A stretch of DNA of 35,177 nucleotides from Ignavibacteriota bacterium (GTDB lineage: Bacteria > Bacteroidota > Ignavibacteria > UBA10030): the NCBI GenBank assembly GCA_003819715.1, contig RPQN01000023.1:1-35177 (forward strand), read 5' to 3'. Position 1 is the first letter of the stretch; each line of letters begins with the position of its first letter. The position numbers and the translations under genes were made by a program. A model generated the notes under the pieces. It was not told where the DNA came from. It ran no database searches and was given only the letters and a program-made list of their open reading frames with translations. Below, piece by piece: positions 10,356 through 35,177 of this stretch.

Positions 10356-10445
10356 AAGAATGCTGGTTCACAGTTGTAATGTAGGTAAGTTTTCAAAGAG
10401 ATTCAAATGTTTCTCGAAAAGAGTACAGGAGTCGATACCCGCCGT

Positions 10446-16878: not shown

Positions 16879-17301
16879 AGGAGTCCCTTTGTATGATTAA
16901 TTGTTTGTGAATTGTTTAGAAAACTTGCATATGAACAAGAGCGAACAATTGCCTAATCCCTTGTGATTCAATCTATCTGGAGGAAATATATGTTGTTTTT
17001 AATTCAAATGTCAACAAAAAAATCATTTTTCTTCAATGTTTTCAGCATCTTCTGATCTCTCCGAATCCCATTTTGTTAAAATTTGAACAAGAGGAATGAA
17101 TTTTTAGTTCACGTTATTTTAAAATTTCTTCGTTTGCGACGCGAAAACTTCATCTCTCTTCGTTATTTTTTTCTTCGAAACTCCGGAATTTGATTTTTTG
17201 ACGTGTATAATAACGCCTGATATCAATTATTGCTGTCCGTATAAAATATTCTTGCTTCTAATTCCGATGGGTAAGTTGATAACCGTCAAGAACCATCATT
17301 C

Positions 17302-17324
17302 ATATACAGTCGTTTATATACAGT
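17302..17324. repeat. Two direct ATATACAGT repeats
   Basis: ATATACAGT occurs at 17302-17310 and 17316-17324, a 14-base period. The ATACAGT core also occurs in inverted orientation as a pair at 26215-26236, just before the integrase. They may be arm-type binding sites for the recombinase or operator sites; this is inference. Confidence 0.4.
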
Positions 17325-17504
17325 GCGCTCAAATACTCGTTTTTTGAATCAGTTCAACTAAAAGACATCTTCAGAGAGTATAAATGAGCTTTTCTACGGT
17401 AATATGACTCACCTTCAAGTATAAACGATTATCTCATATCTACCCTAATGATTATCACTACCTGATATATGCAATTCAACCTTACCACATAGGCGCTAAG
17501 ATAT

Positions 17505-17535
17505 ACTGTATCTAATAGGTTTTATTAGATACAGT
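17505..17535. repeat. 13-bp perfect inverted repeat
   Basis: ACTGTATCTAATA (17505-17517) pairs with TATTAGATACAGT (17523-17535) around a 5-base loop. No U-tract follows on either strand, so it is not a standard terminator. It contains the same ATACAGT core seen near both island ends. Confidence 0.6.
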
Positions 17536-17584
17536 TCATTGAATGATTGACAATAGGAAGAGACTTGAAAGGATATACGGGATA

Positions 17585-17745
17585 AAGAGGGTGGTGCAGA
17601 CCTCCACCCTTCCATCGCTATTTGTAAACCACGTGGACGGAACGTTAGGAACTGGCTGCCGGTTTTTGAACAGGGAGTTTTTGTAAATACATTTATTGAA
17701 TGTATGAACCGAAAGATTTTAATTTCGGCTTTACTCCCCGGAGAT
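17585..17745. repeat. Hairpin-rich, GC-richer block downstream of the ATPase-DUF4435 gene
   Basis: Three short stems lie in a row: AGGGTGG/CCACCCT (17588-17610), ATACATT/AATGTAT (17687-17705) and CCGAAA/TTTCGG (17709-17728). A palindromic CCACGTGG lies in the gap before the second stem. The block is visibly richer in GC than its surroundings. It may be a relic of a mobile element or a structured RNA; I recognise no family. Confidence 0.35.
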
Positions 17746-17772
17746 ATTAATTCACATAGTTTGTTGCCATCA

Positions 17773-19368
17773 TCAATTGATTGTTGGTGTGAATAATTTT
17801 ATCGCACCAATAATTTCTTTCTTTTTATCACCTTTCAGCAACCGTAATATTAAGTTAATATATTCTCCTTCTTTTAACCCAAAATACGCTGCGATTCTCT
17901 TTGGAAGATTTTTTCTATTGTACAATAATAATATCTTTTCCAAACTACGTTCACTTATCGCCTGTTGATATATGGCTTTATTCGCTGAATATATTTTTGA
18001 GGTATCTAGACTAGCAATAACCTTATCAAGCCCGTCCTTAAGCCCTTTTTCTGTATCACTATCTTTGGAATAGGTTTTTAATTTATATTGTATTTCTCTT
18101 TCGGCACGATTTGCAATCTGAACATCAATTTCATCCTCAAGGCATTTAATGATAAAATCGGTTACGTCCTTAACCGTTTTGTCTGAGTCAAGATTTTGGT
18201 TAATTGCAACAAGCCTTAATAGAGGTTCAATGCAAAAAAGATTTTCAATTTCAGCGACATTGATAGTGAGTATTCCAGATTCTTTAAGTTTTTGAATTTC
18301 CTCTTCTGTTCTATAATCACTATCAATAATTCCATAAGCTTTCAAATGATGTAACATTGGTGTTTCACTAATCGCTTTTGTGGATTCAATAACTTTCTCA
18401 CAACTCCCCCTAGGAATAATATGGTATTCTGGATATACTTCTTGGTAAAGAATGTTGTCATAACTTGATTTTTCACCTTCGGAGAAAATAATATTCTTAC
18501 GATTACCAACAATTTCAATAGTTATATTTTCAGGGATTTCATTTAAACTTGGGATTTCATTCCACTCCCAACTTTTTTCTCCATTGTAACTCTTTATCCA
18601 TAATTTCAGACTTCCTTTTCTTGATGATGCAAAATCTAAATCATGGGTGATATATACTAGAAGCTTATTAGGGCATAATTCTTCAATTTTATTCCATAAC
18701 CTTGCCATCAATGACTTATGTAGATGAACTTCCGGTTCGTCAATGATTATTATTGAATTGTCATGAGCACAAAGACATTGTCCAATTAAGTACAATGTCA
18801 CTCTTTCACCATCACTCATTTCCTTTCCATGATATTTATCTTGACCTTCTTTATTTGCCATTACTTTGCCATCTTCAAAATATATTTCCCTTTGAGGCAT
18901 GATATCTTTCCAAAGTCGGATTATTATATCAGTAGGGGCATCAACAACTGGAACATATATTTCCTTCTCTTTTGCTTCTTTTGTGTATTGTCTGTCACGA
19001 TTTGCGGTTCTTGCAAATAATGTTGAAAGTAGTTTGTCATAATCAGTTAGCAAATGTGTGATAGGATTAGAACCCCATCTTGAACTTCTCTTATATTCTG
19101 GAATGGCATATTGGTCTTCTCGCCCATAAAATAAATTCCTCTCAGCTTGTTCTAAATTCATCAATGCAGCGAATTCAGGAATATTTAATGCTCTCTGAGC
19201 TGATATTCTGTGAACATCAATATTTTTTTGAAGCGTCTCTTCAATCCAGGAACCTAGACGTGTCTTACCAGAACCATTTGCTCCGATTAATACAAGGTTA
19301 TTTTCACACTGGAGTTCTTCATTATCTCCTGCTCCAGTTCTATTGGGGAGAACTACACTTGGCTTCAT
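17773..19368 (-). CDS. ABC-type ATPase fused to DUF4435 TOPRIM-like domain (single-chain AriA-AriB/PARIS candidate)
   Basis: 531 residues. The N-terminal ABC/AAA_15-21 ATPase has Walker A GANGSGKT (29-36), signature SDGER (185-189), Walker B IIIIDEPE (206-213) and switch His242 (YITHD). The C-terminal part (from about 290) matches DUF4435: FSEGE (295-299, TOPRIM acidic Glu), IIDSD (347-351, the DxD pair) and NVAEIENLF (370-378). In PARIS, the ATPase AriA holds the DUF4435 nuclease AriB until a phage protein such as Ocr triggers release and tRNA cleavage; fused single-gene versions are known. OLD and Gabija GajA are the main alternatives, but they use a different TOPRIM type. An AGGTAG site precedes the ATG. 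It is AT-rich, on the minus strand, and is the last gene of the island. Confidence 0.78.
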   Translation of the reverse strand: MKPSVVLPNRTGAGDNEELQCENNLVLIGANGSGKTRLGSWIEETLQKNIDVHRISAQRALNIPEFAALMNLEQAERNLFYGREDQYAIPEYKRSSRWGSNPITHLLTDYDKLLSTLFARTANRDRQYTKEAKEKEIYVPVVDAPTDIIIRLWKDIMPQREIYFEDGKVMANKEGQDKYHGKEMSDGERVTLYLIGQCLCAHDNSIIIIDEPEVHLHKSLMARLWNKIEELCPNKLLVYITHDLDFASSRKGSLKLWIKSYNGEKSWEWNEIPSLNEIPENITIEIVGNRKNIIFSEGEKSSYDNILYQEVYPEYHIIPRGSCEKVIESTKAISETPMLHHLKAYGIIDSDYRTEEEIQKLKESGILTINVAEIENLFCIEPLLRLVAINQNLDSDKTVKDVTDFIIKCLEDEIDVQIANRAEREIQYKLKTYSKDSDTEKGLKDGLDKVIASLDTSKIYSANKAIYQQAISERSLEKILLLYNRKNLPKRIAAYFGLKEGEYINLILRLLKGDKKKEIIGAIKLFTPTIN

Positions 19369-19614
19369 AACTACCTATCAATTATTAATTTGTCTGTTGA
19401 TGTATTTCGGTTGAGTTACTCTAATGAAATCATACATATTGCGTTACGACCACCTATGTTCGTTACGATAATATTTATAATTATTTAATCCGTTATCCAG
19501 AATATTTATTGCAACATGCGCGCGTTGTTTTAGAGATAACGGAAAATAATGAAGGTTCCATATTACCAACAGTCTTATAATCTATTTATAATGCAAATTA
19601 TTATTACCTGTAAA

Positions 19615-20553
19615 TTATTCTAACGGAATCCATTCTTTAAAGAATCTCACAATATCTCTTTTCTCCCCTTTATCCAATGGGATATTATAAGAGGGATTTC
19701 CAAAATACTTAATTATATTTTGTCTTTGAAGTTTTGATAACCCATAAGATGTTGCCCTAATGTCTTTTCCTTTTGCATTTATAGCCACTTGAAGTCTTTC
19801 GTTATTTGTGTCATGAAAACCATACCCTAAGAATCGGACTTTCTCAGATTGTTGAATTAATCGTTGTGCTTCAATAAGTTTCCCATCGGCAGGGTTGCTT
19901 TCATGAATTACCGATAAATGCATCATCCCATATAATATATTCTGTACATCATCCGTTGGTTCATATTTGCGATATATTTGATTGTTTTGCCATCCGAGAT
20001 TACCAATATGGCCATAGACATGAATGATAGGAATTTTATTCATTACCATTTTACAGTTATCAAATGAAAGATTCATGTATTCCTTTAATTGCGTAAACAG
20101 ATAATGTTCAAGCGACCTATCATAATTAAAAGTGATAAAACTTATTTGTTCCTTTTTAAGATTATCAATGTCTTTTCTTAATACTTCAAAAATCATTGAA
20201 TACCAATTCTCTTTATTATCTCTCGCAAATAATCGCGCTTCATTTTCATAAGGAATAAGAGCTTGTGCAATCACTGCCTTGCCAACATTTAGAAATTCAG
20301 GACGGGCTTGGAGGAAATCATCAATAGATTCAACCACTGCTTTTAATAGTGATTCTCGTAAACGTTGAATCTTTTCATATTCAAATTGACTAACAGAACC
20401 AATTAATTCTGTAGCCACCTTAGCGAGTACAGCCGTTTTTGAAGAGAGAGATATATTATCAATTATATCTGTTACAAGTTGGTAACCCGAAGGAAAACCA
20501 TAAGGTATGCTTGCTCCTGCACCGAGAATAAATACAGTTCTGCTTTTAAACAT
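19615..20553 (-). CDS. SIR2-like domain protein (candidate NAD-consuming defence effector)
   Basis: 312 residues. The N-terminus FILGAGASIPYGFPSG (residues 8-23) is the nucleotide-binding loop of the SIR2/SIR2-like superfamily. ITFNYDRSLE (140-149) holds the conserved Asn and Asp, HVYGHIG (178-184) the catalytic-type His, and RFLGYGFHDTN (240-250) the second nucleotide-binding segment. There is no zinc-binding Cys cluster, as in bacterial SIR2-like NADases (ThsA, DSR-type) rather than true deacetylases. Any fused sensor would have to be the C-terminal ~60 residues, so partner proteins may be separate. AAAGGA precedes the ATG. The next gene on the same strand, 246 bases downstream, is the ATPase-DUF4435 protein, so the two may be independent units. 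Confidence 0.75.
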   Translation of the reverse strand: MFKSRTVFILGAGASIPYGFPSGYQLVTDIIDNISLSSKTAVLAKVATELIGSVSQFEYEKIQRLRESLLKAVVESIDDFLQARPEFLNVGKAVIAQALIPYENEARLFARDNKENWYSMIFEVLRKDIDNLKKEQISFITFNYDRSLEHYLFTQLKEYMNLSFDNCKMVMNKIPIIHVYGHIGNLGWQNNQIYRKYEPTDDVQNILYGMMHLSVIHESNPADGKLIEAQRLIQQSEKVRFLGYGFHDTNNERLQVAINAKGKDIRATSYGLSKLQRQNIIKYFGNPSYNIPLDKGEKRDIVRFFKEWIPLE

Positions 20554-20629
20554 ATAATCCTTTCAGTCTTGAAGCATTCCATACAAATTTATTTAGAAGC
20601 TCTGGTGCACAACCTTCTTGAAACGCTGG

Positions 20630-21229
20630 TCATCCTACGCGTGGATTATCTTCTATTTTAATGGACGAAAGATATTTCTTTAGATTCTTTCTTGTTCTTT
20701 TATGAGACCTAGAATTGGCAATGGCTGTTTTTCGGTGCTTTATTATTTCTTTTTTATTCTCTTCAACAATTTCACTAAGTTTATAGGTAACAGTTGCAAT
20801 TTCATTTGCAATTATTTCTAATTGTGGAACGGTCGGCGGAGTGGTATCAACTTCAAATTTACCAATATTATATTTTGAATATCTGCGTTTTGTGACATAC
20901 GTTTTGAATGGCATCCAAAAAAAACCTAGAACTGCGTGAACATTAGTATTACGCGCTTTATTACATTTATTCATATCGGTTACGATTTCAGCAAATTTAT
21001 TCAATTGTTTTTTATCAACGATTCTATATCTAAACAAAACATCAAGTAAACGAAGGAGATTGATAAATGGTTCGTTAGCTGTTATTCGTATGTTTGCACC
21101 CTTATCTTCGCCAATTAGAAGCCCGATGGACCTACACATTTCATCTTCAAGCTTTGAAAGGTTTACAGTTATTAAACCAATAATATTTAAGTAATCTTTT
21201 TCGCGAAAGGAAGTTTCTATACCTGCCAT
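20630..21229 (-). CDS. HEPN-like protein with RNxxxH motif (candidate RNase)
   Basis: 199 residues from the ATG at 21229, chosen because GGAG lies 6 bases upstream; a TTG at 21241 would add four residues. The helical N-terminal ~110 residues follow a common bacterial HEPN pattern: a long helix with LSKLEDEMCRSIGLLIG, a second with FINLLRLLDVLF, and ARNTNVHAVLGF carrying R93-N94...H98, the Rx4H signature of HEPN ribonucleases. The C-terminal half is basic and helical (KHRKTAIANSRSHKRTRKNLKK). An RNA-cleaving toxin role is inferred. No obvious MNT antitoxin is next to it. The gene is separated from the SIR2 gene by about 76 bases. Confidence 0.6.
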   Translation of the reverse strand: MAGIETSFREKDYLNIIGLITVNLSKLEDEMCRSIGLLIGEDKGANIRITANEPFINLLRLLDVLFRYRIVDKKQLNKFAEIVTDMNKCNKARNTNVHAVLGFFWMPFKTYVTKRRYSKYNIGKFEVDTTPPTVPQLEIIANEIATVTYKLSEIVEENKKEIIKHRKTAIANSRSHKRTRKNLKKYLSSIKIEDNPRVG

Positions 21230-21404
21230 AATTGTCTCCAATATTATGGACTTTGCTGGATAACGATGGTAGCCTAGCCACCATCGTTAGTTTGTTCCAT
21301 CAATTCCTTATTACGTGTTCGTCCATTCCTTTTTTCAAATATATTATTGAAGTGATAAACATTAATTCTTCAATGCCTTCCAGTCTACCCTTCGTTCGTC
21401 TTAT

Positions 21405-21839
21405 CTACTTGAAATTCCCCAGGTCTTTTTGCCATCTAATTATTTCATTAACTAGTCGTTTTTGTAATATTTCGTTTCCACTATACAATGCTGACGAATC
21501 GGAGGGTGTTAATGGGTCCATCACTAATGATACTAACGATGTATAGATACTTTCTAATGTCCTTCGTGTGTCAGAGTCATGGAAATAGTCTCCCAATGCG
21601 ACCAACTCACTATATGGTTGAATAAATGTCGGCGTAGGAGCCACCATGCCTCCGGATGATACCTTTTCTGCCGGTTTAATAATTATCTGTGCCAGAATTA
21701 TGCATTTTCTTAAATCATCTTCTCGTTTATTTTTCTTCTCTCTACTATCAATGGCTTTTGTATATTTCGCTAAGACAATTGTGGCATATGCAAGAACAAC
21801 TGTTGCGAGAGCCATAATTATTTCTGTAAATAATTTCAT
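21405..21839 (-). CDS. Small membrane-anchored protein of unknown function
   Basis: 144 residues. One N-terminal membrane helix (EIIMALATVVLAYATIVLA, about 6-24) is followed by a charged linker (KAIDSREKKNKREDDLRK) and a soluble helical domain with LVALGDYFHDSDTRRTLESIYTS. No family recognised. AAAGGC sits 8 bases before the ATG. Its layout resembles the other single-helix proteins of this island cluster and it lies between the HEPN gene and the next anchored protein, all on the same strand. Confidence 0.7.
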   Translation of the reverse strand: MKLFTEIIMALATVVLAYATIVLAKYTKAIDSREKKNKREDDLRKCIILAQIIIKPAEKVSSGGMVAPTPTFIQPYSELVALGDYFHDSDTRRTLESIYTSLVSLVMDPLTPSDSSALYSGNEILQKRLVNEIIRWQKDLGNFK

Positions 21840-21887
21840 ACAAGTTGCCTTTCACTAATATTATTTGACTGTCTCCTATGAATGCAA

Positions 21888-22328
21888 TCAATATGTACTT
21901 ATATCCTCAAGGCGCCATTTATTAGTACTTTCAATATATCTGATTTTTACAACGAAGTTCGTTCTTATCACAGCACCAAATGAATTTTGTGAGTCAACGT
22001 ACGATGATATAGTAAATGTTACGCCATCCTTAGTACTTATATTGGATTCAGACATTGATGCAAAATCAGCCGATGCAGGGGATGTAAGTTGTTCTTTGAT
22101 AAAATGTTTAGCCATCGTGTAAGCATTTGTTCTTAAGGAATCCTTACTTTGAGTTCCGCTATCCGAAAACAGATTTGCTATTACTATGAATGCAAAGACA
22201 CCAAGTATTATATACCAATATTTTTTTCTCTTCTTTGCCTTTTCCTCTTCTTTAAACTTATTCTGAATTTGAAGCTTTGCAGATTCTTCAGCATAAATCC
22301 TATCTCGGTCTTTCTGTGATAATTCCAT
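21888..22328 (-). CDS. Coiled-coil/TM protein with conserved C-terminal domain
   Basis: 146 residues. A highly charged N-terminal coil (KLQIQNKFKEEEKAKKRKK) leads into one membrane helix (about 38-53, YWYIILGVFAFIVIANLF), placing a small domain outside the cytosol: AKHFIKEQLTSPASADFAS, then ISSYVDSQNSFGAVIRTNF and KIRYIESTNKWRLEDI. I recall this SPxxAxF...SYVDxQNSFGAxIR pattern from many short bacterial membrane proteins, often with an N-terminal zinc ribbon that is absent here; its role is unknown. A GGAGG ribosome site precedes the ATG. The 48-base gap to the next gene suggests co-transcription. Confidence 0.75.
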   Translation of the reverse strand: MELSQKDRDRIYAEESAKLQIQNKFKEEEKAKKRKKYWYIILGVFAFIVIANLFSDSGTQSKDSLRTNAYTMAKHFIKEQLTSPASADFASMSESNISTKDGVTFTISSYVDSQNSFGAVIRTNFVVKIRYIESTNKWRLEDISTY

Positions 22329-22639
22329 ATATCCTCCACTTATTAAATCTCTTTACATCTCTTTCATATATTTCACTCACCTATATTCTACCCACCAAGT
22401 TGCTAGCAATAAAGAGTGATGGTATCAAGTGTTTAATTAAAATCAGATGGACGAATACAAATAGATAAAGGTGGAGAATTGTTTTTAAGTGGAAGCCTCT
22501 CTGGTAAAGGTCGTTTAATCTTACATAAATGGAAGGTTATTGTCGTAATTAATGCGTCATATATTCGTTACCAAACTCCAGATAGTTGTTGGTATAAAAA
22601 TGAATGTCATTTAGAATGGGATAGAATACGATGCTTTTA
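22329..22639. other. 311-base intergenic gap inside the island
   Basis: AT-rich. I see no convincing gene, hairpin or repeat here. It should contain the promoter of the two small anchored proteins on the minus strand. Confidence 0.5.
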
Positions 22640-23566
22640 TTATTTATTTTCCCCTTTTATAATTGCTTTTACTTCTGTTCTAATACGTTCCATGGCAACC
22701 ATAGATTTTCCAATTAAGTATTTGTTCTTACACTTTGGGCAATAATAGTTAGAACTTGATTGCATTATCGCGCCAACGACAAATGCTGAAGGACTATCAC
22801 CAACATTTATTTTATTATATTCATAAAATAATAATGGTGTCCTATCTATTGGACAGAGAGGGTCTACATTAAGTTCGCCTGTCCGTTTTTCATATTCCCA
22901 CAAGACATCCGCATGTTCTACATATTTATTATCACGCATAACACTTACCATATCTCTTAATCGTTTCTTTTCATTGATTTTTAATATTGCAGGAATAGCT
23001 GAATTGACTTTTTCAAACGTGGCATCATCCAGTGGCAGATATGGTTTACAAGCACATTTCTCTATAGGGCAACTATAGCCACCGTTCATAGTTTTTGACG
23101 GAATTAATTTTGCTTCATGAATTGGACAGTAGTGGGCTCTTTCTATTTCGCCGTCTACTATGCGCCATTTTACATCTAAGTATTTTACAAATTCCTCAGA
23201 GTGTTTTTTCCTCTGAATCTCTTTTGGCGTTACACTTATCTCATTAATTATTTTCTTGGGCTCTGTTAAAGGAATAACCTTTTCGGTAGAGACAATGCCA
23301 GACGTTTTGTTTCTTCTTGGTATATATTTTACCGCAGTCATGATAATTACTAATTGGATAAATATTGCAATAATAAATGTTTGAAATGACCAATCAATAA
23401 TTGGTTTCTGCCACATGGTATATAAGTAAGGGACTATTAGATTCCACAATGGAGTGAACCATTTGAAAGTGAAATGGTCAAATATAAAATAGGCGAAAGT
23501 AATAATCTTTATCCAAGTTTCATACTTAATGTATATTTGTTTAATATTATGTAATACATTAATCAA
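22640..23566 (-). CDS. Two-helix membrane protein with zinc-ribbon-like Cys pairs
   Basis: 308 residues. Hydrophobic segments lie at about 19-50 and 63-80. The cytosolic part holds CPIH (147-150) with CPIEKCAC (166-173), and CPID (238-241) with CPKC (276-279): two candidate zinc knuckles. The stretch between them is helical (KVNSAIPAILKINEKKRLRDMVSV). No family recognised. The start is TTG, supported by AAAGGA 7 bases before it and by its position 18 bases after the XRE regulator stop, which makes the two an operon. The membrane anchor with paired zinc motifs could serve as a sensor or assembly platform; that is inference. Confidence 0.7.
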   Translation of the reverse strand: MINVLHNIKQIYIKYETWIKIITFAYFIFDHFTFKWFTPLWNLIVPYLYTMWQKPIIDWSFQTFIIAIFIQLVIIMTAVKYIPRRNKTSGIVSTEKVIPLTEPKKIINEISVTPKEIQRKKHSEEFVKYLDVKWRIVDGEIERAHYCPIHEAKLIPSKTMNGGYSCPIEKCACKPYLPLDDATFEKVNSAIPAILKINEKKRLRDMVSVMRDNKYVEHADVLWEYEKRTGELNVDPLCPIDRTPLLFYEYNKINVGDSPSAFVVGAIMQSSSNYYCPKCKNKYLIGKSMVAMERIRTEVKAIIKGENK

Positions 23567-23584
23567 AGGTGAGTCCTTTTATCA

Positions 23585-24079
23585 TTAATCATTATAAATA
23601 ATCTGAAGGGCTTTTAATATTTTATCTAATTTATCTTTTCTGGGAAAACATAATCCACGGACATAAAGTGAAACTAAGCTTCTATTATCACCTACCTTTC
23701 TTGCTAAATCAGATTGGTTCATTCCTGTTTCTTTCAATCTATCGCGAATGAGTTTCGCAAGTTTTTGGTTTCTTGGTCTTTGTTTATGTTCCGCCTGTAA
23801 CAGTTTGTCATATTCACCAGCTGTTTCTAATCCGATACTATGTGCTAGCATAGTTTTATACTCATATGAGGATGAAACACCTTTTTGTTTAATAAGATAT
23901 AGATTGTATTCATTCATTGATTTAAAGCCATGCTTTTTCGCAAGAAAAGTCTGATAATCTGTGTATTTTTTAAATCCTTTTTTCTTGGCTATTTCTTCAA
24001 AGTAATATTTATAGTCAGATAATTCGGTGTTATCTTTCTGGTGTTTAATATGTTTATTATCAGAGTCTCTTTTTTCCAA
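23585..24079 (-). CDS. XRE-family regulator with four tandem 16-residue repeats
   Basis: 164 residues, TTG start with AGGG 8 bases upstream. Residues 31-94 are four exact-length 16-residue repeats: AKKKGFKKYTDYQTFL, AKKHGFKSMNEYNLYL, IKQKGVSSSYEYKTML, AHSIGLETAGEYDKLL (consensus GF/GV at 5-6, EY at 11-12, L at 16). A degenerate fifth unit may precede them. Residues about 104-160 form an XRE/HTH_3 domain: LIRDRLKETGMNQSDLARKVGDNRSLVSLYV. The HTH should bind DNA; the repeat helices probably mediate oligomerisation or ligand contact. It is first in an operon with the zinc-ribbon membrane protein. Confidence 0.8.
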   Translation of the reverse strand: MEKRDSDNKHIKHQKDNTELSDYKYYFEEIAKKKGFKKYTDYQTFLAKKHGFKSMNEYNLYLIKQKGVSSSYEYKTMLAHSIGLETAGEYDKLLQAEHKQRPRNQKLAKLIRDRLKETGMNQSDLARKVGDNRSLVSLYVRGLCFPRKDKLDKILKALQIIYND

Positions 24080-24151
24080 GATAACACCCTGTTGGAAATG
24101 CGATTTGTTTTAGATAGGCTTATATATTCATATCACAATATTTACAAATAT

Positions 24152-25024
24152 TCATTCAATTTTTAAAAAAGCCCTTATCTTACTATATTCTGCGTCAAAT
24201 CCACCTAAATATTTATTTTCTTTAAAATTAAATGTAAATCCATCATTGAACGGAATCTTTATTTTACCTTCTGGGTCTCTTGAAAAAGACCCAGTAATAA
24301 AAATATCAACTTCCGGTTGGAGAAGTATGTTGGATGATATATTGGTCTGTAGGGTTCTTGTGGTTTCTACAATCAATGCACTTTCTCCACTGGCAAGTTT
24401 ATCTGCTTTCAAGAGAGTAGGACGGTAATTTTTCCCTATTAATAAGTAACAGGTAAGAATTATATTATAAGTTGTTCCATCTTTTGAAATAAAATTAATA
24501 AATAGTATATCCTTATCCTTGTTAAGATAAGCAGGTGGTTTTCCATCAATCACTGGCGAAATTGATAATTGAGAGTTAAGGGCATTCAATTTTAAAGTGC
24601 TTACCACAGAATGCAATGAATCGCTATACCTTAAATGATATTTTGCGAGCGCATCATTGGATGCCTTAATACTATTTGTATATGCATTTTTAACTTCGTA
24701 GACTATTGTATCTTTAGTTGATTTTTGGAGTTGCATTATTTTATTTTGTGCATCTTGAAAAAGTGAATCAACTTTCTTTTTTTCTTTTTCGGATGCTAAT
24801 TGTTTGATTTCAGATGCTTCTTGTTTTAAATCTGCTCTCCAATCCCTATATAAATTAAATACAATACTTAAAATGGCAAAAAGTATTAAAACCCAAGCCA
24901 TTCCCTTTATTCGGTGAAAAGGAGATTTTTTTGAGTGTTTAATATAAATCAGGTCTTTCACTGAAAGAATGGCAAAACTCATTAGAAAAACATTGACAAG
25001 AAAATTTAAAATATAATCAGGCAT
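24152..25024 (-). CDS. Two-helix membrane protein with long coiled coil, unknown function
   Basis: 290 residues. Membrane helices at about 5-22 and 42-58 (VLILFAILSIVFNLY) are followed by a charged coiled coil (about 64-135, KQLASEKEKKKVDSLFQ) and a C-terminal beta-rich domain with LFINFISKDGTTYNIILTCYLL and FITGSFSRDPEGKIKIPF. No family recognised. The start ATG has no clear ribosome site. It is first in the minus-strand run of membrane proteins and lies 73 bases before the XRE gene. Confidence 0.65.
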   Translation of the reverse strand: MPDYILNFLVNVFLMSFAILSVKDLIYIKHSKKSPFHRIKGMAWVLILFAILSIVFNLYRDWRADLKQEASEIKQLASEKEKKKVDSLFQDAQNKIMQLQKSTKDTIVYEVKNAYTNSIKASNDALAKYHLRYSDSLHSVVSTLKLNALNSQLSISPVIDGKPPAYLNKDKDILFINFISKDGTTYNIILTCYLLIGKNYRPTLLKADKLASGESALIVETTRTLQTNISSNILLQPEVDIFITGSFSRDPEGKIKIPFNDGFTFNFKENKYLGGFDAEYSKIRAFLKIE

Positions 25025-25099
25025 AATGTAGTGAGTGGTTTATAAGTAGTTATGAGAAAGTTAGATATTAGAGAACACAAACGCAAATTAATGAGACAC

Positions 25100-25123
25100 A
25101 AAAGCCCGCTTTCGCGGGCTTTT
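25100..25123. terminator. Bidirectional terminator after the integrase
   Basis: AAAAGCCCGC (25100-25109) and GCGGGCTTTT (25114-25123) form a 10-bp stem with a 4-base loop, followed on the plus strand by TTATTTTT and on the minus strand by TGTGTC. It separates the integrase from the cargo genes. Confidence 0.85.
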
Positions 25124-25164
25124 TATTTTTAAGACCGTATTACAGTGACTATATATTAACCATA

Positions 25165-26181
25165 TTAGAATTGTATCTTATTCACAGAAGAAACGAGAGT
25201 GCTTGGCAGTAAATGGCTATACGTGTTTGCTGTAAGATTCACGGAGCTATGTCCAAGTATCTTCTGAATCTCATAAATGGAAACTCCACTAACACATAGT
25301 AATGAAGCGGCGCTATGTCGTGTTGAATGAAAATGTAAATCTGGATTGAGTCCAGATACTCTTACACACCTTTTAAAGTATCTACTCACATAACTTGCTT
25401 CATATTTATAACCACCTTTATTGAAAACATATCCTCCATTTTGTCTTCGTTTCTTCAAGACAGATTTAACCAAGTCGTGCATCGGCACTACCCTATTCCT
25501 GCCTGTCTTGGTTTGAAAAGTTTCATCGTTTATAACTTGAATCAAAGAATCTTTAAAATCCACCTGACACCATCGCAAGTTTACAATTTCCGAAAGTCTC
25601 ATACCTGTTAAACATGCAACAAGATATAAATCTTTAAAAGTATCATTCTTCACGACTGCCAGCAATTTCTCAATATCTGCTTTCTGCATAAACGAAATTT
25701 TCCTTGTTACTTGTTTCACTTGTTTTGAATACTTGAATGGATTTTTCTGCAAATACTCATTATCCACGGCACTCTGAAAGACAGATTTCACAGCCCGATA
25801 ATACATATTAACAGTAGTTGCAGTTTTCTTCTTATCCAAGCAGTAGTTTTTGAATCGTTCAACATCTTCAAGCGTATATTGACTTAGCAGTTTATCGCCA
25901 ATAGCCAAAAGGAAATGTCTCTGTGCAGAATTATGAAGCTCAATCGTTTTGTGTCGTAGCAGATTAGATTTTAGAGATACGTATAACTCATAGAATGATG
26001 AAAGCGTGTGCATCACCTTCACCGGCTCTGCTGTTACTTCTGGCTTGTTTAATAGAAATGAAAGTGCATCACTTTTCTTTCTGCAATGAGTGGTTCGCCA
26101 TTGTATTTTTCCAGCAGAGTTTTTAATGCCGAGGTAGTATATCTTATTTTCAGAGCGTCTGTTCCAGTAAATCGTAGACAT
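25165..26181 (-). CDS. Tyrosine recombinase/integrase
   Basis: 338 residues from the ATG at 26181, chosen because AAAGGAG sits 6 bases upstream; a GTG at 26214 is in frame but has no such site. The N-terminal SAM-like core-binding domain (about 55-150) is followed by the catalytic domain with Arg195 (TGMRLSEIVNLRW), Lys225 (TFQTKTGRNR), HSTRH (His285, Arg288), His311 (ILGHSS) and nucleophile Tyr321 (ANTYSHL). All catalytic residues are present, so the enzyme is probably active. It lies next to tRNA-Asp, on the 5' side of the tRNA, and ends with its own terminator. It is the best evidence that 17.3-26.2 kb is an integrated element. Confidence 0.93.
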   Translation of the reverse strand: MSTIYWNRRSENKIYYLGIKNSAGKIQWRTTHCRKKSDALSFLLNKPEVTAEPVKVMHTLSSFYELYVSLKSNLLRHKTIELHNSAQRHFLLAIGDKLLSQYTLEDVERFKNYCLDKKKTATTVNMYYRAVKSVFQSAVDNEYLQKNPFKYSKQVKQVTRKISFMQKADIEKLLAVVKNDTFKDLYLVACLTGMRLSEIVNLRWCQVDFKDSLIQVINDETFQTKTGRNRVVPMHDLVKSVLKKRRQNGGYVFNKGGYKYEASYVSRYFKRCVRVSGLNPDLHFHSTRHSAASLLCVSGVSIYEIQKILGHSSVNLTANTYSHLLPSTLVSSVNKIQF

Positions 26182-26214
26182 GTTGAACTCCTTTCGTGGT
26201 TGAAAAGAGTTCAC

Positions 26215-26236
26215 ATACAGTGTATAAAAACTGTAT
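26215..26236. promoter_or_regulatory. Inverted ATACAGT pair upstream of the integrase
   Basis: ATACAGT (26215-26221) and ACTGTAT (26230-26236) form an inverted pair with 8 bases between, 34 bases before the integrase ATG. It may be an operator in the integrase promoter or a recombinase arm site; the same core occurs at the opposite end of the island (17302-17324 and 17505-17535). Confidence 0.45.
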
Positions 26237-26311
26237 ATTTTTTACGAAAGAACTAGAACTTCAGACTTGAAACAGACATTTAAAACCATTATATTAATTG
26301 TATAATGTTAT

Positions 26312-26386
26312 GGGGTCGTAGCTCAGCTTGGTTAGAGCGCCTGCCTGTCACGCAGGAGGTCGCGAGTTCGATCCTCGTCGGCCCCG
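26312..26386 (+). tRNA. tRNA-Asp (anticodon GTC)
   Basis: A 75-base cloverleaf: GGGGTCG pairs with CGGCCCC before discriminator G. The anticodon stem CCTGC/GCAGG encloses CTGTCAC (anticodon GTC) and the T arm is GCGAG-TTCGATC-CTCGT. A TATAAT box lies at 26301-26306, six bases before it. CCA is not encoded. This is the probable target neighbourhood of the island integrase, although the island lies on its 5' side. Confidence 0.95.
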
Positions 26387-26387
26387 C

Positions 26388-34290: not shown

Positions 34291-35177
34291 TTAAACGCTT
34301 GAAGACTCTGTTGCCTTCGTTTCATCCGCCTTAAGGTCCTGCATCAATCTGTCGAAGGTCTTTTTGTAGTTAGTATGGTTCTTCCAGTTTTTGAAATCTC
34401 CAATGTTACGTGTTCTCCTTATGTCTGCTGCCCAAGCAATACTTGTATCCATAACAGTATCATCTAATCGTACAGGAAATAATACAATCTTGTTCTCCTT
34501 CCGTTCTTTCTCAAAGGCTGTCTCAACTTCTTTCTCTACCCAGTCACTCTTCACTGAAGATTCAGACAAAACAATAAGTAGTTTATCATGAATTTTTATT
34601 GCCTCATCAATCCCATGCCTGATCTTCTGACCAATTTTTAAATCTTCTGGCGCGAACCAACAACGGACACCTTCCGTTTGAAGGTCTGCATACAAACGTT
34701 TCGCAAAATCCTCATCCTTACTTGAATAACTAATGAAACATGAATAATAATCAAACGCATTTCCTGTAAGTGAGTTCATACATTCAATGAAGCTTTCTGG
34801 CACACCAGCTCCCATAAGAAATTTGTGCGGTATTTTCCCTTTGGAATTGTAAATAGTATCAATCCCAATATATGAAGGACCTACATGTACAACTTCTTCG
34901 AGCTCTTTCACTTCGCTGATATCAACATTTATGAAAAGTGTATTATAAAGACGAGCTCCTTTAAATTTTGCTCCATCAAGAATTGCACCTCTAAGGTTTG
35001 TTGAAATAAGGGTTGCACCATTTAGGTCTACTCCACTGAGGTCTGTATATAAAAAGTTTGCATGAAAGAGATCTGCATTACTGAGATTTGCTTCACTGAG
35101 GTTTGCAAGTCCGAAGTCTGCTCTAAAAAGGTAAGCGTCACTTAAGTTTGCTCTAAGGAGGTTTGCTTCACGGAGAT
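34291..35177 (-). CDS. Pentapeptide-repeat/TIR-domain protein, 5' end beyond window
   Basis: The frame is open from the right edge to the TGA at 34291; an internal GTG at 34911 is not the true start because the upstream part, read in frame from the edge, is an uninterrupted pentapeptide array (ANLLRANLSDAYLFRADFGL, ANLSEANLSNADLFHANFL, and so on) with A(D/N)LxX steps. The C-terminal ~150 residues form a TIR domain: CFISYSSKDEDFAKRLYADL, GVRCWFAPEDLKIGQKI, IVLSESSVKSDWVEKEVETA (catalytic-type Glu). Bacterial TIR domains often cleave NAD+ in anti-phage responses; the quadrilateral pentapeptide helix is a probable sensing or interaction part. It is AT-rich relative to the neighbouring core genes. 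Confidence 0.85.
   Translation of the reverse strand, partial: LREANLLRANLSDAYLFRADFGLANLSEANLSNADLFHANFLYTDLSGVDLNGATLISTNLRGAILDGAKFKGARLYNTLFINVDISEVKELEEVVHVGPSYIGIDTIYNSKGKIPHKFLMGAGVPESFIECMNSLTGNAFDYYSCFISYSSKDEDFAKRLYADLQTEGVRCWFAPEDLKIGQKIRHGIDEAIKIHDKLLIVLSESSVKSDWVEKEVETAFEKERKENKIVLFPVRLDDTVMDTSIAWAADIRRTRNIGDFKNWKNHTNYKKTFDRLMQDLKADETKATESSSV

What the first reader, a model, noticed from the sequence alone, without database searches (positions are those of the whole stretch)
17773..19368. Single-chain ABC ATPase-DUF4435 protein: a fused PARIS-type immune gene
One 531-residue chain contains a full ABC ATPase (Walker A, SDGER signature, Walker B, switch His) and a DUF4435 TOPRIM-like part with FSEGE and DSD acids. 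This is the AriA plus AriB design of PARIS in one gene. It sits in a mobile island with SIR2-like and HEPN-type genes. The fused form is less studied than two-gene PARIS, and what phage protein triggers it here is unknown.
Basis: partly seen in the sequence, partly recalled or inferred. Interest (0 to 1): 0.75.

Follow-up and report, generated by a model that had tools for sequence, protein, structure and literature searches.

The report
Fused PARIS anti-phage gene, one chain
This is a bacterial immune gene of a known kind (PARIS, here in its already described one-gene form) that probably senses an invading virus and then shuts down protein synthesis in the cell; the copy is intact and sits on a small mobile DNA island, but its kind is not new.

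Summary
An intact 531-codon gene on the MINUS strand (19368 to 17776) joins an ABC ATPase to a DUF4435/Toprim domain. It matches PADLOC's fused AriAB profile over its full length (E 9e-153) and passes Pfam cut-offs for AAA_21 and DUF4435, the published definition of single-gene PARIS. All catalytic residues are present and conserved in 15 relatives. The gene lies on a 9.0-kb low-GC integrase island inserted 5' of tRNA-Asp; a same-genus genome has the empty site. The SIR2-like neighbour is supported, the HEPN one only by an R-x4-H motif. Annotated relatives share no partner gene. Likely mechanism: a phage protein acts on the ATPase assembly, freeing the Toprim domain to cut host tRNA; trigger, substrate and oligomer are inferred. 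Unlike two-gene PARIS, the effector cannot be released as a separate subunit, and the ATPase lacks about 180 residues of AriA. Fusions were described in 2022: a new member of a known kind.

The parts
17773..19368 (-). fused AriAB (PARIS) gene, 531 aa plus stop
   Evidence: PADLOC AriAB PDLC02982 E 9.3e-153; Pfam AAA_21 and DUF4435 above gathering
18514..19368 (-). ABC ATPase (AriA-like) half, residues 1-285
   Evidence: AAA_21; VIA-align Z 14.3 to AriA 8v46_C
19261..19284 (-). Walker A GANGSGKT (residues 29-36, K35 invariant)
18802..18816 (-). ABC signature SDGER (residues 185-189)
18730..18753 (-). Walker B IIIIDEPE (residues 206-213); E211 lines up with AriA E393
   Evidence: query 183-242 to AriA 365-424, equal lengths
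18643..18645 (-). switch histidine H242
17776..18513 (-). DUF4435/Toprim (AriB-like) half, residues 286-531
   Evidence: model pLDDT 92.7; best match AriB 8ux9_A Z 10.4
18472..18486 (-). Toprim motif FSEGE (residues 295-299; E297, probable counterpart of AriB E26)
   Evidence: E26 equivalence from range offset, inferred
18316..18324 (-). Toprim DxD motif DSD (residues 349-351)
17259..26273 (.). mobile island, about 9.0 kb, GC about 0.33 against about 0.48 in the flanks; boundaries approximate, from the empty site in a same-genus genome
25165..26214 (-). tyrosine recombinase/integrase of the island
   Evidence: PF00589 E 1.1e-30; phrog_1 E 9.5e-69
26312..26387 (+). tRNA-Asp(gtc) beside the insertion point (island lies on its 5' side; the tRNA is intact)

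Best explanation
It is a single-gene (fused) PARIS anti-phage abortive-infection system of the AAA_21+DUF4435 class, carried by a small integrase-driven island. Most likely the ABC half forms a nucleotide-dependent oligomer that holds the C-terminal Toprim domains inactive. A phage protein binds the ATPase half, the assembly rearranges, and the tethered Toprim domains pair up and cut host tRNA by two-metal catalysis, stopping translation and phage growth. Shown here: the domains, intact catalytic residues, the fold match of the C-terminal half to AriB, and island mobility by empty-site comparison. Inferred from two-gene PARIS: oligomer, sensing of a phage protein, tRNA as substrate, growth arrest. 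Own inference: since the effector is covalently tethered it cannot be released, so activation must happen within the assembly.
For: PADLOC AriAB E 9.3e-153 over residues 9-528. Pfam DUF4435 and AAA_21 above gathering and AAA_15 below it (18.1 vs 32.1), matching the published fusion rule of AAA_21/AAA_15 plus DUF4435 in one protein (PMC9122126). All 16 aligned members hit AriAB and AAA_21, and 15 of 16 hit DUF4435. Catalytic residues (near-)invariant. C-half best structural match is AriB, Z 10.4 over 199 residues, against OLD Toprim 6.5. ATPase half matches AriA Z 14.3. An equal-length profile alignment puts E211 on AriA E393, the residue mutated in 8v49. Relatives are found on plasmids, viral contigs and chromosomes, and the annotated ones share no partner gene. 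Mechanism of two-gene PARIS: PMC12409363 and PMC11455837.
Against: The solved two-gene AriB is too far away to be found by sequence (no AriB chain up to E 10), and the structural alignment to it has high rmsd (6.4 A, 8% identity). A natural two-gene AriB aligns with the fused Toprim profile over only 44 residues with low hhalign probability. So tRNA as substrate is an extrapolation. The ATPase half fits PtuA as well as AriA, with SMC-like ATPases about one Z unit behind. The ATPase lacks about 180 residues found in AriA, so trigger and assembly may differ. No HsdR of type I restriction was found in the genome and the only PglZ hit is PorX-like, so a role guarding restriction is not supported here; the assembly is about 95% complete.
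Confidence: 0.8

Rival explanations
1. A class 1 OLD-family nuclease (stand-alone ATPase-Toprim) that degrades DNA rather than tRNA.
For: Same order of domains (N-terminal ABC ATPase, C-terminal Toprim) in one solo gene. OLD Toprim domains are the next-best structural matches (Z 6.5), and T. scotoductus OLD appears among ATPase profile hits. A review notes it is unclear whether fused AriAB works differently from class 1 OLD (PMC10568477).
Against: The AriAB profile wins by more than 400 bits over GajA and DUF4435 is above its cut-off. The C-half fold is nearer AriB by about 4 Z units and aligns over 199 rather than about 150 residues.
Confidence: 0.1
2. The gene is one component of a larger defence module with the adjacent SIR2-like gene (19615-20553) and the HEPN-like gene (20630-21241), not a solo system.
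For: The three genes are consecutive on one strand of the island.
Against: None of the annotated relatives on plasmids of several phyla has a SIR2 or HEPN gene next to it (one has a nucleotidyltransferase-HEPN protein about 2.3 kb away). The gap of 246 bp to the SIR2 gene leaves room for a separate promoter.
Confidence: 0.05
3. Effector ATPase-Toprim of a retron (type I-B), or a MADS/Septu-like ATPase that only resembles PARIS.
For: Weaker PADLOC hits: ATPase-Toprim_I-B 2.6e-11, mad3 2e-12, PtuA 9e-11; PtuA ties with AriA for the ATPase fold.
Against: These hits cover only parts of the protein and are about 460 bits below AriAB. No reverse transcriptase, HNH nuclease or MADS partner was found among the neighbouring proteins scanned.
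Confidence: 0.02

Closest known systems
Single-gene (fused) PARIS, AriAB, AAA_21+DUF4435 class (Rousset et al. 2022, PMC9122126; PADLOC PDLC02982)
   Same: Same two domains in the same order in one chain, full-length profile match, catalytic residues intact
   Different: At most 38% identity to the relatives found here; it is on a 9-kb integrase island of a non-model genome. No respect in which it departs from the class was found.
Two-gene PARIS (AriA + AriB, E. coli B185; PDB 8ux9, 8v45-8v49)
   Same: ABC ATPase plus DUF4435/Toprim; C-half fold closest to AriB; Walker B E211 aligns with AriA E393
   Different: One chain (1:1, tethered) instead of an AriA hexamer with three releasable AriB; ATPase core about 180 residues shorter between Walker A and signature; trigger and target tRNA unknown
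OLD-family nucleases (class 1 OLD, GajA)
   Same: ATPase-Toprim architecture; related Toprim fold (Z 6.5)
   Different: Profile and fold scores well below AriAB/AriB; no GajB-type helicase neighbour among the proteins scanned
PtuA (Septu and retron Eco7/Ec83 ATPase)
   Same: ATPase half folds alike (Z 14.9)
   Different: PtuA pairs with an HNH nuclease (PtuB); the protein here carries its own DUF4435/Toprim effector in the same chain

Membership tests
Fused PARIS (AriAB) | AAA_21 or AAA_15 ATPase above cut-off | tested here: met
   AAA_21 41.3 bits against cut-off 27
Fused PARIS (AriAB) | DUF4435 above cut-off in the same uninterrupted ORF | tested here: met
   61.6 bits against 27, residues 291-516; no internal stop
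Fused PARIS (AriAB) | Full-length match to a dedicated AriAB profile, better than to other ATPase-Toprim families | tested here: met
   PDLC02982 507.9 bits; next 53.7 (AriB); GajA 29.9
Fused PARIS (AriAB) | Intact ATPase (Walker A/B, signature, switch His) and Toprim (E, DxD) residues | tested here: met
   K35, S185-E188, E211, H242, E297, D349, D351, E375
Fused PARIS (AriAB) | Toprim half folds like AriB | tested here: met
   AriB 8ux9_A Z 10.4, rmsd 6.4, 199 residues; OLD 6.5
Fused PARIS (AriAB) | ATPase half folds like AriA more than like other ABC defence ATPases | tested here: inconclusive
   AriA Z 14.3 tied with PtuA 14.9
Fused PARIS (AriAB) | ATPase oligomer that holds the Toprim effector inactive; activation by a phage protein | not testable with these tools
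   needs protein or phage experiments
Fused PARIS (AriAB) | tRNA cleavage and growth arrest | not testable with these tools
   needs experiments
OLD / Gabija GajA | Best profile and best Toprim fold match is OLD/GajA | tested here: not met
Gabija | Adjacent UvrD-like helicase GajB | tested here: not met
   no such protein among the nine island proteins scanned
Retron type I-B effector | Adjacent reverse transcriptase | tested here: not met
   no RT family among the island proteins scanned

The most novel reading that the evidence does not exclude
The compact fused form works by a distinct activation mode: no effector release, but activation of tethered Toprim domains within the ATPase assembly, with a different trigger class because the roughly 180-residue insertion of AriA is missing. 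That would separate the AAA_21 fusions mechanistically from two-gene PARIS.
Probability: 0.4. Interest if true: 0.45.

Novelty: new member of a known kind. Interest (0 to 1): 0.2.

Why it matters
In the two-gene model AriB is released and dimerises. A fused chain cannot do that, so fused PARIS asks directly whether release is needed or whether AriA activates AriB, a point the PARIS authors leave open (PMC12409363). This copy is intact, but any of many fused homologues would serve as well.

Tried and rejected
The search for related loci on genome contigs found no relative, once with the single protein and once with the alignment, probably because its short patterns did not reach such divergent homologues; the genome search and plasmid tblastn did. 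Single-sequence phmmer against the PDB found nothing. Foldseek alone did not rank AriB highly for the C-half (best E 0.05, unrelated folds); the structural realignment of its candidates did. A profile of the Toprim half found no AriB chain by sequence. An att direct repeat at the island ends was looked for and only chance-length repeats (10 bp or less) were found. A role guarding type I restriction or BREX was considered: no HsdR_N, and the only PglZ protein carries a receiver-like domain, so it looks like PorX and not BREX. The two Nature 2024 structure papers were not held, so details of AriA's trigger surface could not be checked.

Full report
CHECKING THE OBSERVATION. In an alignment with 15 homologues from plasmids and whole genomes and a second with 10 viral-contig homologues, the catalytic positions K35, S185, D186, E188, H242, E297, G298, D304, D349, D351 and E375 are invariant in both (E211 and K486 are invariant in the first and at least 90% in the second). 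The Walker A to Walker B spacing (159-191) and the E297 to D351 spacing (53-57) are also held.

WHAT IT IS. PADLOC's fused AriAB model matches residues 9-528 at E 9.3e-153, 508 bits; the next families (AriB, a second AriAB model, AriA) score about 50 bits and GajA 30. Pfam gives DUF4435 at 61.6 bits (cut-off 27) and AAA_21 at 41.3 (cut-off 27), while AAA_15 stays below its cut-off. This is the rule by which single-gene PARIS was defined in 2022: AAA_15 or AAA_21 plus DUF4435 in one protein (PMC9122126). That paper reports ariAB in 5.2% of genomes, as a two-gene cassette or a single-gene fusion. A later paper repeats that the two proteins are sometimes fused (PMC12409363). A PHROG also covers residues 18-518 (phrog_25246, E 1e-133), so the form is known in phages too.

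AlphaFold2 gave a confident model of the whole chain (pLDDT 86) and of the C-half alone (pLDDT 93, pTM 0.87). Realigned against solved chains, the C-half matches AriB of the PARIS complex best (8ux9_A Z 10.4, rmsd 6.4; 8v46_D Z 10.3, rmsd 6.1; 199 residues, whole length), with OLD Toprim domains next (Z 6.5 or lower, about 150 residues) and unrelated folds below 5. Because the aligned ranges start at model residue 1 and AriB residue 13, E297 (model residue 14) would fall on AriB E26, the known catalytic glutamate; this equivalence is inferred from the offset, not from a printed alignment. The ATPase half matches AriA at Z 14.3 but ties with PtuA at 14.9, so it does not discriminate. By profile, residues 183-242 align to AriA 365-424 with equal lengths, putting E211 on AriA E393; the E393Q mutant of AriA is PDB 8v49.

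ANATOMICAL DIFFERENCE FROM TWO-GENE PARIS. The signature starts at residue 185 here and near 367 in AriA, so the fused ATPase lacks about 180 residues that AriA has ahead of its signature. All relatives in this class are compact in the same way. Together with the covalent tether, this means that the published sequence of events (an AriA hexamer releases AriB, which dimerises) cannot apply unchanged. Activation within the assembly is the simplest alternative. The PARIS authors themselves say that AriB appears to be activated by AriA, not simply released, by a mechanism still unknown.

SURROUNDINGS. The gene is on a low-GC stretch (about 0.33 against about 0.48) with a tyrosine integrase at the far end, next to an intact tRNA-Asp. 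In a same-genus genome (G004) the two flanks are adjacent: homology stops at window 17053 and resumes at 26274, and an 18-base identity at window 17241-17258 matches the sibling at 10361-10378, directly beside the tRNA-Asp-side homology. So the island spans roughly 17259-26273, and the insertion lies on the 5' side of the tRNA gene. No direct repeat longer than chance was found at the ends. Within the island, the genes upstream of the fused gene encode a SIR2-like protein (PADLOC SIR2 E 2e-10) and then a small protein with an R-x4-H motif, whose HEPN identity is weak.

DISTRIBUTION. The protein is absent from the five other genomes of the genus and from all sampled relatives apart from one partial ATPase match. 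It is found in 8 of 395 genomes of the phylum, 3 of 391 of the class (both counts include this genome), in 53 plasmid records, mostly Campylobacter and Escherichia, then Rhizobium and Salmonella, and in viral contigs. The nearest relatives are a Pseudoalteromonas plasmid gene (38%) and viral-contig genes; the tree leaves the exact place open. This patchiness fits horizontal transfer. Neighbourhoods of the annotated relatives share no partner gene, so the gene most likely works alone.

VERDICT. A well-supported, intact new member of a known kind, the fused PARIS system. Its mechanism is inferred from two-gene PARIS. The one point that would interest a specialist, how a tethered effector is switched on, applies to the whole class and not to this copy in particular.

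Noticed in passing
L014:5363-9638 (Paraburkholderia sabiae plasmid pPs24235_1): A two-gene PARIS (AAA ATPase 476 aa + DUF4435 324 aa) lies directly upstream of a fused AriAB gene: both forms side by side in one island.
   Followed up: partly
L009, L012, L025, L028 (N-terminal 115-150 residues of the fused protein): A well-supported clade (100/100) of fused AriAB carries an extra N-terminal region ahead of Walker A, without a Pfam match in the three scanned; it could be an added sensor.
   Followed up: partly
L020:9520-10157 (Rhizobium sp. BT04 plasmid): The fused AriAB reading frame has about 210 extra residues at its C-terminus, annotated as one 2.2-kb gene; no Pfam match there.
   Followed up: partly
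window 20630-21241, minus strand: 203-aa protein with an RNTNVH (R-x4-H) motif, next to the SIR2-like gene; no relative in plasmids by tblastn and HEPN profile only at E 0.64.
   Followed up: partly
window 19615-20553, minus strand: SIR2-like 312-aa protein with distant relatives (24-26%) on Agrobacterium and Rhizobium plasmids.
   Followed up: partly
window 34291-34911, minus strand: Stand-alone TIR-domain protein (TIR_2 E 6e-26, ThsB-like 6.6e-5) near tRNA-Arg at the right end of the window, in lower-GC DNA; perhaps the start of a second defence island.
   Followed up: partly
window 21888-22328, minus strand: Small protein with a likely transmembrane helix, matching phage family phrog_13160 (E 9.5e-21, unknown function) and weakly a superinfection-exclusion family (E 0.008).
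   Followed up: no
window 17505-17537: Perfect 13-bp inverted repeat (ACTGTATCTAATA / TATTAGATACAGT) between the AriAB stop and the left island end, seen by eye; possibly a terminator or recombination site.
   Followed up: no
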